Assembly (NCBI RefSeq): GCF_001647085.1
Contig: NZ_CP015520.1
Location: forward strand, 1,756,219 to 1,820,218
Source: Thermococcus piezophilus
GTDB taxonomy: Archaea > Methanobacteriota_B > Thermococci > Thermococcales > Thermococcaceae
DNA length: 64,000 nucleotides
Direction: 5' to 3'
Made by a program: the position numbers and the translations under genes. The notes beneath the pieces are model-generated. The model was not told where the DNA came from, did not search any database, and was given only the letters and a program-made list of their open reading frames with translations. How positions within the stretch are numbered: position 1 is the first letter of the stretch; the number at the start of each line of letters is the position of its first letter. Below, piece after piece: positions 17,637 to 20,984 of this stretch.

Positions 17637-17841
17637 GATGATTGAATGCTGGAAGGCAAGAGGATAACGGTGATAATCCCAGCATACAACGAGGAAAGGA
17701 GGATACTAAACGTTCTCAGCAAAATTCCGGAGTTCGTTGACGAGATTATAGTGGTGGACGACGGTAGTGGAGCTGTTCCATAAATAATAACAAGCGAAGC
17801 TTTTAAATATTTTTGGTACTAATTTCTTTTGGGTGAGAGGG

Positions 17842-18450
17842 GTGAAGCTTTATCGAACTGGTGAAGCAGCAAAGAAGCTCGGAGTTTCCAAGATGACAGT
17901 CCTTCGTTGGATTAAATCAGGCAAACTTAAAGCCCACAAAATCGGCAAAGAATACAGAGTCCCTGAAAGCGAAATCAAGAGAATTCTTGAGGGCAAAGTC
18001 CCTGATAAAGTAGTCATTTACGCCAGGGTCTCGGGCAGAGACCAGAAGGAGGACTTGGAGAGACAGGTTGAATACCTCAAGAATTACTCTTCTTCAAAAG
18101 GTTACCAAGTGGCCAAAATCATCACGGACATTTCCTCCGGCCTGAACGAGAACAGGAAGGGCTTAAAACAACTCTTCAAATTGGTTGAGAGCGGAGAAGT
18201 TACCAGAGTCATCATAACTTACCGGGACAGGCTCACGCGATTCGGCTTCAAATACCTCGAACAGTACTTCAACTCTCATGGCGTTGAGATTGAAGTAATC
18301 TTCGATGACGAGGAGAAAACACCAGAAAAAGAACTCGTTGAGGATTTATTAGCCATTGTAACCTCATTTGCTGGAAAACTTTATGGCATGCGCTCTCACA
18401 GGAAAAAACGCCTCATTAAGGCGGTAAAGAATGCCCTTAGAAACGATTAA
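17842..18450 (+). CDS. tnpA: IS607-type serine recombinase TnpA
   Basis: About 202 residues. An N-terminal MerR-like helix-turn-helix (TGEAAKKLGVSKMTVLRWIKSG) is followed by a small serine recombinase domain: VVIYARVSGRDQKEDLERQ, with catalytic Ser in YARVSG and the conserved Arg nearby, and YRDRLTRFGFKYLEQYF. It catalyses excision and insertion through a circular intermediate. GTG 17842 behind GGTGAGAGG is preferred; GTG 17833 is the alternative. A TATA-like TTTTAAATA lies at about 17801-17809. The frame is intact. Confidence 0.93.
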   Translation: MKLYRTGEAAKKLGVSKMTVLRWIKSGKLKAHKIGKEYRVPESEIKRILEGKVPDKVVIYARVSGRDQKEDLERQVEYLKNYSSSKGYQVAKIITDISSGLNENRKGLKQLFKLVESGEVTRVIITYRDRLTRFGFKYLEQYFNSHGVEIEVIFDDEEKTPEKELVEDLLAIVTSFAGKLYGMRSHRKKRLIKAVKNALRND

Positions 18451-19597
18451 GCTCACTGCCAAATTCAAGCTCAAAACAATTCCTGAAGGGTTAGGCAGCC
18501 TTTTCTCCACTTATCGTGAGATTGTAAACCTTCTCATAACTTACGCTTTCGAGAACAACGTTACGAGCTTTTACCGGCTAAAGAAGGAAACTTACAAGGG
18601 ATTGCGCAAGGAATATCCGGAACTCCCAAGCCATTACCTTTACACGGCCTGCCAGATGGCGATTGCAATTTTCAAAAGCTACAGGAAAAGAAGGAGGAAG
18701 GGGAAAGCTAAGGGAAAACCAGTTTTCAAGAAAGATGTTATAATGCTAGACGATCACTTGTTCAAACTCGACTTGGAAACTAAAACCGTAAAACTCTCCA
18801 CTCCTCAAAGAAGGCTTAGTTTGAAGTTTTACCCGGCCAAATACCACGAGAGGTTTAAGGACTGGAAGGTTGGACAAGCTTGGCTCGTCAAAACGCCAAA
18901 AGGCGTCTTCCTTCATGTTGTTTTCTCAAAGGAGGTCAAGATTAGAGAGCCTGAAGCTTTTGTCGGAGTTGATTTGAACGAGAATAATGTAACTCTTTCC
19001 CTCCCGAATGGTGAGTTTTTGCAGATTATCACCCACGAGCGGGAAGTTAGAACGGGTTATTTTGTTAAGAGGAGGAAAATCCAGAGGAAAATTCGAGCTG
19101 GTAAGAAAAGGAAAGAACTCCTCGAGAAATACGGGCAGAGGGAAAGAAACAGGCTGAACGACCTCTACCATAAATTAGCTAACAAAATCGTCGAGTTTGC
19201 GGAAAAATACGGTGGTCTCGCCCTCGAAGATTTAACAGAAATCAGGGCGTCAATCAGGTATTCAGCCGAGATGAATGGTCGTTTGCACCGCTGGAGTTTT
19301 CGCAAACTCCAGTCAATCATCGAATACAAGGCTAAACTAAAGGGCATAAAGGTTGTTTTTGTCAATCCCGCTTTTACTTCTTCCCTGTGCCCGATATGTG
19401 GGGGTAAGTTAAGCCCGAATGGGCACAGGGTTTTAAAGTGTTCAAACTGTGGTTTTGAATCAGATAGGGATGCTGTTGGCTCTTGGAACATTCGTTTAAA
19501 AGCCCTGAAGATGTGGGGAGTCTCCGTTCCCCCCGAACGCCAGCCGATGAGCAGAGGCTGGAAGGTTACCCGCTACAATTACATGTTCCAAAAGTAG
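18431..19597 (+). CDS. tnpB: TnpB RNA-guided RuvC nuclease of the IS607 element
   Basis: 388 residues of the transposon nuclease family ancestral to Cas12. The three RuvC acidic sites are present: the Asp of VGVDLNENNVTLS, the Glu of LALEDLTEI and the Asp of SDRDAVGSWN. A zinc ribbon lies between the last two (CPICGG...CSNCG). Known TnpBs use an RNA from the element's right end to cut the empty donor site. No stop or frameshift, so it is predicted active. The start overlaps tnpA by 20 bp; the last codons and TAG form part of the right-end hairpin. Confidence 0.94.
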   Translation: MPLETIKLTAKFKLKTIPEGLGSLFSTYREIVNLLITYAFENNVTSFYRLKKETYKGLRKEYPELPSHYLYTACQMAIAIFKSYRKRRRKGKAKGKPVFKKDVIMLDDHLFKLDLETKTVKLSTPQRRLSLKFYPAKYHERFKDWKVGQAWLVKTPKGVFLHVVFSKEVKIREPEAFVGVDLNENNVTLSLPNGEFLQIITHEREVRTGYFVKRRKIQRKIRAGKKRKELLEKYGQRERNRLNDLYHKLANKIVEFAEKYGGLALEDLTEIRASIRYSAEMNGRLHRWSFRKLQSIIEYKAKLKGIKVVFVNPAFTSSLCPICGGKLSPNGHRVLKCSNCGFESDRDAVGSWNIRLKALKMWGVSVPPERQPMSRGWKVTRYNYMFQK

Positions 19598-19606
19598 CGG
19601 ATAACC
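19525..19606 (+). ncRNA. Predicted omega-RNA (reRNA) scaffold end of the IS607 element
   Basis: Three nested or consecutive hairpins occupy the tnpB 3' end: CGTTC/GAACG (19525-19529, 19535-19539), CCAGCC/GGCTGG (19540-19545, 19556-19561), and a 13-bp stem with one mismatch, GGTTACCCGCTAC/GTAGCGGATAACC (19564-19576, 19594-19606). TnpB guide RNAs of known elements overlap this location and take their guide from flanking DNA past the end. Here the guide would begin at about 19607 in the glycosyltransferase gene. The 5' limit is not determinable by eye. Confidence 0.6.
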
Positions 19607-20141
19607 AGAACGGACAACACCTACGGAGTTGCCGGGAAATACTCCAAGACTGACTCCAGAGTGAAGGCCTTCCGGCTGGAGAAGAACTGCGGCAAAGGCT
19701 GCGCAATGAGGGAAGGTGTCAATCACGCGAGCGGAGATGTAATCGTCTTCATGGACGCGGATGGCCAACACAGGCCAGAGGAAATCGTGAAGCTCATTGA
19801 ACCGATAGTCAAAGATGAGGCGGATTTTGTCATCGGTGCAAGGAAATTCGAGGTTCAGGGAAAAAGACCGCTCCACAGGAGACTGAGTAACATAATCACT
19901 ACCCGACTTATACGCCTAAAGCTCAGACAGTACGTCTACGACACCCAGAGCGGCTTTAGGGCGATACGGAGGGAGTTCGTCCCAGAAATCGAAAGCGACC
20001 GCTATGAGGTCGAGACGGAGGTGCTAATAAAGACCGCCAAGGCCGGGGCGAGGATTAAAGAAGTGCCCGTAAGCATGATATATGGCGTCGAAACAGGCCA
20101 CTTCCGCCTCGAGGATGTTCTCCGCTTCCTCTGGGCACTGC

Positions 20142-20984
20142 TCAAGTTCTGAGCTCGCTCTTTACCCTCACCGCCCCAAGGGTTCCGAGGGTTATCAGGA
20201 GGAAGCCGAGGGCGTGGTAGGGGGTAAATCTCTCCCCCAAGAACACACCGATTCCTATCGCGACCGCAGGGGCCGGAGTTATTATGGTAGTCGCCTTAGA
20301 GAGGTTGATGAGCTTTATCGTCCTGTACCAAACAATCTGGCCGAGAGCTATTACCAAGCCCTCAGCAAGGATGAACTTTGAGAGCTCAAGACCCGTCGCA
20401 ACCGCGAAGGGAAGCAGGATTAAAAAGCCAAACGTATTCCTGAGGGCTGCTATAGTTATGGGGCTGTATGAAAGCTTTTTAGATATGACATGACCAAGTT
20501 GCCAGAAAAGGGGAACCAGCAGGAGAAGGAAGTCTCCAAAATGAAGCTCCATGGAACCGCCCTGGGTGATTACAAGAACCAAGCCAGCTAGGATAACCGC
20601 AGAATATGCGACGAGATTTCTGGTTATTCGTTCTCCAAGGAAAACCCACGAAAGGAAGAACGAGAAAAGAACTTCACTTCTAGTAATAAGGGAAGCGTTT
20701 ATGGCGGTGCTCAGCCGCACGCCATAGGAATAGGCCAAATAAGCTAGTGCCGTTCCAAAGAACCCTATAAAAAAGGCGCCCTTCAGCCCCTTCCGGTTAT
20801 CCTTAATCTCCCGCCATCTTCCGCTCCAGAGGAGGTTTCCCCACAGAATTAAAGACGCTGTAAGAGCAGAGAACGTGGCAAAGCTAACCGGATTCGAGTG
20901 GTTTGATTTTATTACCACCGGCTCGAGGCCGTAAATGAGCATCCCAATCATTGCGAAGAGTGTCCCGAGGGATTCCTGCTCCAT
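20142..20984 (-). CDS. EamA/DMT-family transporter
   Basis: 280 residues with about ten membrane helices in two homologous halves (for example FATFSALTASLILWGNLLW, FLLLLVPLFWQLGHVISKK and the C-terminal YHALGFLLITLGTLGAV). Members of the drug/metabolite transporter superfamily export amino acids, sugars or other metabolites; the substrate here is unknown. A TATA-like ATTTATAACC (minus strand, about 21005-21014) lies 22-30 bp upstream of the ATG, so the leader is very short. Convergent and overlapping with the interrupted glycosyltransferase. Confidence 0.9.
   Translation of the reverse strand: MEQESLGTLFAMIGMLIYGLEPVVIKSNHSNPVSFATFSALTASLILWGNLLWSGRWREIKDNRKGLKGAFFIGFFGTALAYLAYSYGVRLSTAINASLITRSEVLFSFFLSWVFLGERITRNLVAYSAVILAGLVLVITQGGSMELHFGDFLLLLVPLFWQLGHVISKKLSYSPITIAALRNTFGFLILLPFAVATGLELSKFILAEGLVIALGQIVWYRTIKLINLSKATTIITPAPAVAIGIGVFLGERFTPYHALGFLLITLGTLGAVRVKSELRT

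What the first reader, a model, noticed from the sequence alone, without database searches (positions are those of the whole stretch)
17766..19606. IS607 element with base-level ends that restores a glycosyltransferase when removed
AG at 17766-17767 and at 19607-19608 fit the dinucleotide core of IS607 recombination. Removing 17766-19606 gives an uninterrupted 221-residue GT2 protein. Both transposition genes are intact, so this looks like a recent insertion and a natural excision test site.
Basis: partly seen in the sequence, partly recalled or inferred. Interest (0 to 1): 0.65.

Follow-up and report, generated by a model that had tools for sequence, protein, structure and literature searches.

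The report
Archaeal jumping gene splitting a glycosyltransferase
A complete IS607-type jumping gene sits inside a sugar-transfer gene of a Thermococcus-like archaeon, and a close relative without it shows that its true ends lie five bases to the right of those first proposed, so its exact removal would rebuild the relative's protein motif.

Summary
The element is real: an intact IS607-family insertion (serine-recombinase TnpA 17833-18450, RNA-guided nuclease TnpB 18431-19597) splits a GT2 glycosyltransferase (17646-20152). The proposed AG/AG ends are wrong. The element is therefore 17771-19611, inserted in the middle of a GGGG run (AGTGG^GGACAAC) without duplication. At about ten other insertions of the family, relatives' empty sites show the same two extra bases, mostly GGGG. 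The right end carries a covarying two-hairpin RNA, a probable omega-RNA. The restored site would put G-rich sequence directly before a 23-nt guide match, so TnpB should recut excised copies (inferred). Excision that merges the two flanking GG pairs would instead frameshift the gene. The element is ordinary for IS607. More unusual are related 0.2-kb copies and TnpB plus ribbon-helix-helix-like copies sharing the same ends.

The parts
17771..19611 (+). IS607-family element, net insertion of 1841 bp (AGCTGTT...AGAAC)
   Evidence: Anchor distance 1886 in the window versus 45 in G028; empty-site alignment
17769..17770 (+). Left GG of the GGGG target (host)
   Evidence: G028 empty site AGCGGGGACAAC
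19612..19613 (+). Right GG of the GGGG target; conserved GG at all right ends aligned
17833..18450 (+). tnpA, IS607 serine transposase: N-terminal helix-turn-helix plus resolvase catalytic domain
   Evidence: Pfam HTH_17 and Resolvase; NCBIfam transpos_IS607 239 bits, cut-off 110; ISC1926 TnpA structure E=1e-54
18431..19597 (+). tnpB, RNA-guided nuclease
   Evidence: Pfam Cas12f1-like_TNB and OrfB_IS605; NCBIfam guided_TnpB 188 bits, cut-off 100; solved Cas12f/TnpB relatives
19533..19613 (+). Right-end structured RNA, probable omega-RNA scaffold (two hairpins then AGAACGG)
   Evidence: Covariation over 29 right ends, 76 double-changed cells versus 28.9 in shuffles
19614..19636 (+). Probable guide: first 23 nt of the right flank, identical in the empty allele of G028
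   Evidence: (match), guide role inferred
17646..17770 (+). 5' part of the interrupted GT2 glycosyltransferase gene
   Evidence: Joined translation
19612..20152 (+). 3' part of the interrupted GT2 gene
   Evidence: Pfam Glycos_transf_2; joined translation

Best explanation
This is an autonomous IS607-family insertion, 17771-19611, in the middle of a GGGG run in a GT2 glycosyltransferase gene of a Thermococcus-type archaeon. Shown by comparison: the ends, the absence of duplication, the in-frame restored sequence (DDGSGDNT) and the family-wide GG^GG target tendency. Inferred from known IS607 biology: TnpA excises the element as a circle and inserts it at G-runs by serine-recombinase strand exchange; the right end is transcribed as an omega-RNA whose guide is host sequence from 19614; TnpB reads the G-rich left flank as its target-adjacent motif, so it would cut the restored site GGGG-ACAACACCTACGG and favour refilling from a sister copy.
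For: Empty site in G028 and exact 1841-bp difference. Restored protein VVDDGSGDNT as in G028. Same-genome and genus copies share the left GCTGTT and right AGAACGG ends. Empty sites of other copies carry two extra bases, mostly GGGG. TnpA and TnpB family, structure and intactness. Covarying right-end RNA. Published IS607 target (G)GG, no duplication, circle (PMC6188088, PMC4058570); G-rich motifs for bacterial IS607 TnpBs (PMC11061315).
Against: The left end varies by one base between copies, so the exact point of strand exchange is not fixed. A simple 2-bp GG core shared by both ends would predict an empty site two bases shorter than observed. Two sites have GGAG or GGTG in relatives and one has only GGG. 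No excision, RNA or nuclease activity was measured.
Confidence: 0.92

Rival explanations
1. One reading: the element is 17766-19606 with an AG recombination core, and excision gives a DDGRTDNT protein.
For: Open 221-residue frame after removal.
Against: No relative examined has DDGRTDNT; the nearest has DDGSGDNT. AGAAC 19607-19611 is invariant in the right ends of other copies, so it is element sequence.
Confidence: 0.02
2. Canonical 2-bp core: the GG at 17769-17770 recombines with the GG at 19612-19613, so excision leaves a single GG and a frameshifted, still broken gene.
For: IS607 is described as exchanging across a shared GG, and GG flanks both ends here.
Against: Orthologous empty sites at this and about ten other copies have two more bases than this predicts, and the product is out of frame. 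These observations concern insertion; excision itself was not observed.
Confidence: 0.2
3. The insertion is old and the element is dead; intact frames are coincidence.
For: No identical copy in the genome; the best resident copy is 83% identical.
Against: Both genes are open over their full length. A relative with 97-98% identical flanks lacks the element. The GT2 pieces show no significant excess of nonsynonymous changes over panB (7:12 versus 7:23 codons, p=0.35).
Confidence: 0.06

Closest known systems
IS607 family (IS607 of Helicobacter pylori, IS1535, ISC1904 and ISC1926)
   Same: tnpA with N-terminal DNA-binding and serine catalytic domains, overlapping tnpB, G-rich insertion sites, no target duplication
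   Different: Here the closest empty sites are mostly GGGG split in the middle; TnpA is closest in sequence to the archaeal ISC1926 enzyme among solved structures
IS607 TnpB systems with RAGATH-18-derived guide RNAs (ISFba1; PMC11061315)
   Same: TnpB with a structured RNA at the element's right end and a G-rich sequence at the left flank (published motifs AGGAG and GAGGG)
   Different: No Rfam family reached its gathering score; the motif is inferred from empty sites, not assayed; the NCBIfam IS607_TnpB model scores far below its cut-off (39.9 versus 350)

Membership tests
IS607 family | TnpA is a serine recombinase with an N-terminal helix-turn-helix domain (inverted domain order) | tested here: met
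   HTH_17 at residues 6-54, Resolvase at 60-194; transpos_IS607 above its cut-off
IS607 family | tnpB downstream of tnpA | tested here: met
   18431-19597, overlapping tnpA
IS607 family | No terminal inverted repeats | tested here: met
   Left 30 bases and reverse complement of right 30 bases compared by eye only
IS607 family | No target duplication; GG or (G)GG target | tested here: met
   Net +1841 bp into GGGG
IS607 family | Identical 2-bp core at both ends | tested here: inconclusive
   GG flanks both sides, but a shared GG core predicts a shorter empty site than observed
IS607 family | Circular intermediate and TnpA-dependent transposition | not testable with these tools
   Needs PCR or a transposition assay
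IS607 family | Subterminal direct repeats bound by TnpA | not tested
   Not searched for
TnpB/omega-RNA nuclease | TnpB fold with RuvC and zinc-ribbon region | tested here: met
   guided_TnpB above cut-off; alignment to solved Cas12f/TnpB proteins
TnpB/omega-RNA nuclease | Structured RNA ending at the right end, guide from the flank | tested here: inconclusive
   Structure supported by covariation; transcription and guide use not shown
TnpB/omega-RNA nuclease | Target-adjacent motif at the left flank | not testable with these tools
   GGGG inferred from empty sites; needs a cleavage assay

The most novel reading that the evidence does not exclude
In Thermococcus one IS607 TnpA may move three kinds of element with the same ends: autonomous tnpA plus tnpB; tnpB with a small ribbon-helix-helix-like protein in place of TnpA; and 0.21-0.24 kb elements that keep only the left end and the omega-RNA end. 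Their common GGGG insertion site may double as the TnpB target-adjacent motif, so TnpB made by one copy could protect the small copies in trans through their own guides.
Probability: 0.35. Interest if true: 0.55.

Novelty: new member of a known kind. Interest (0 to 1): 0.3.

Why it matters
The locus is a defined natural site where two excision products of an IS607 element can be told apart by sequencing: GGGG (gene restored) and GG (gene frameshifted). It also shows an insertion preference for G-runs that coincides with the likely TnpB motif, linking how the element inserts with how TnpB would recognise the emptied site.

Tried and rejected
AG core and 17766-19606 ends: rejected by the empty site and the family alignment. 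A single-GG joint as the ancestral site: rejected because empty relatives mostly have two extra bases. Rfam search of the element, its full copy and the short copies: no family reached threshold. The original IS607 paper (PMC110970) is not held, so its description of insertion sites was not re-read. Relatives at L050 could not be aligned through the junction; no empty site spanning the junction was recovered for L046, L049, L051, L052 and L058. Searches for papers on Thermococcus IS607 elements gave none that describe them, judged from titles and abstracts.

Full report
What is there. Window 17646-20152 holds a GT2 glycosyltransferase gene split by an element with two open genes. Gene 1 (17833-18450) is an IS607 serine transposase: HTH_17 plus Resolvase, NCBIfam transpos_IS607 at 239 bits against a cut-off of 110, and the solved ISC1926 TnpA catalytic domain at E=1e-54. 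Gene 2 (18431-19597) is TnpB: guided_TnpB at 188 bits against a cut-off of 100, with Cas12f and TnpB proteins as its solved relatives. Both genes are free of stops and align over their full length with some twenty relatives.

Where the ends are. The closest relative genome, G028, has the uninterrupted gene with GGT AGC GGG GAC AAC at the junction. The window has AGTGG, then the element, then GGACAAC. Distances between shared anchors differ by exactly 1841 bp. The net insertion is therefore 17771-19611, between the two GG pairs of a GGGG run. The joined gene encodes 221 residues with VVDDGSGDNT, as in G028.

Is this a rule? Flanks of 12 further full copies and 7 shorter copies were joined with a single GG pair and searched in 60 genomes of the genus. 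Closest empty sites: L039 TCTGGGG|GG|TTAT (95% identical), L002 four or five G, L041 five G, L042 five G, L048 five G, L057 five G, L060 four G, L006 four G, and the site made of L004's left and L005's right flank four G. L045 has GGAG and L043 has GGTG in the relatives aligned; read in frame by eye, the changed base is the third position of a glycine codon in both, so the target itself may have been GGGG. L061 aligns with a GAG insertion in one 81% relative. One site (L005 left with L004 right) has only GGG. The left end varies by one base: AGCTGTT here and in L044, GCTGTT in most, TTGTT in L041. The net footprint is firm here; the exact nucleotide of strand exchange is not.

How it most likely works. 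Published IS607 work describes exchange across a GG dinucleotide, (G)GG targets, no duplication and a circular intermediate (PMC6188088, PMC4058570). The right end encodes a two-hairpin RNA with 76 double-changed paired cells against a mean of 28.9 in shuffles, and sliding the partners destroys the pairing. It is followed by AGAACGG and then the flank, as expected for an omega-RNA. If so, the guide begins at 19614, and its first 23 nt match the G028 empty allele, next to GGGG. Bacterial IS607 TnpBs that were assayed need AGGAG or GAGGG (PMC11061315), so a G-rich motif is plausible. The model, inferred and not shown, is that TnpA excises, TnpB cuts the restored GGGG-ACAACACC site, and repair from a sister copy puts the element back.

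Two excision products can be told apart. Exact reversal leaves GGGG and restores the gene. Merging the flanking GG pairs leaves GG and frameshifts it. The insertion footprints favour exact reversal, but excision itself was not observed.

Age. The relative with 97-98% identical flanks lacks the element. The GT2 pieces carry 7 nonsynonymous and 12 synonymous codon differences from G028, against 7 and 23 for neighbouring panB (p=0.35), so no decay is visible. The resident full copy is only 83% identical, so the donor was another copy or came from outside. Close GT2 orthologues (E of 1e-70 or better) occur in 42 of the 61 genomes searched, counted by hand from the rows; four near-complete genomes (G010, G013, G017, G020) show none, so loss seems tolerated.

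Verdict. This is an ordinary, well-preserved new member of the IS607 family.

Noticed in passing
L057, L058, L060, L061 (other genomes of the genus): Elements of about 1.44-1.46 kb with the same left (GCTGTTTC) and right (AACCAGAACGG) ends carry tnpB and, in place of tnpA, a short frame of about 54 residues that matches ribbon-helix-helix models weakly (best E=0.0044, below the curated cut-off)..
   Followed up: partly
L004, L005, L006 (own genome C1 near 505.0, 948.0 and 1205.9 kb): Elements of 210-236 bp keep the left end and the structured right end but no full gene; they look like non-autonomous copies that still encode the guide-RNA end.
   Followed up: partly
L004 and L005 (own genome C1 505 kb and 948 kb): L004's left flank and L005's right flank are contiguous in G028 and G014, and L005's left with L004's right in G040. 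The copies are in opposite orientation, which suggests an inversion of about 443 kb between them in this genome.
   Followed up: partly
L007 (own genome C1 842.2 kb): A near-perfect palindrome made of two facing copies of the right end, CCGTTCTGGTTACCCGCTAC...GTAGCGAGTAACCAGAACGG, without the left end.
   Followed up: no
L002 (own genome C1 506634-508483): The second full copy (83% identical) interrupts a gene that reads ERWGTG in frame when the GGGG site is restored; L003 (tnpB without tnpA) and L004 lie within 10 kb.
   Followed up: partly
L041 (G011 C1 1567158-1569004): An independent copy in another species lies beside the orthologue of the same GT2 gene, at the end of the neighbouring transporter gene.
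   Followed up: no
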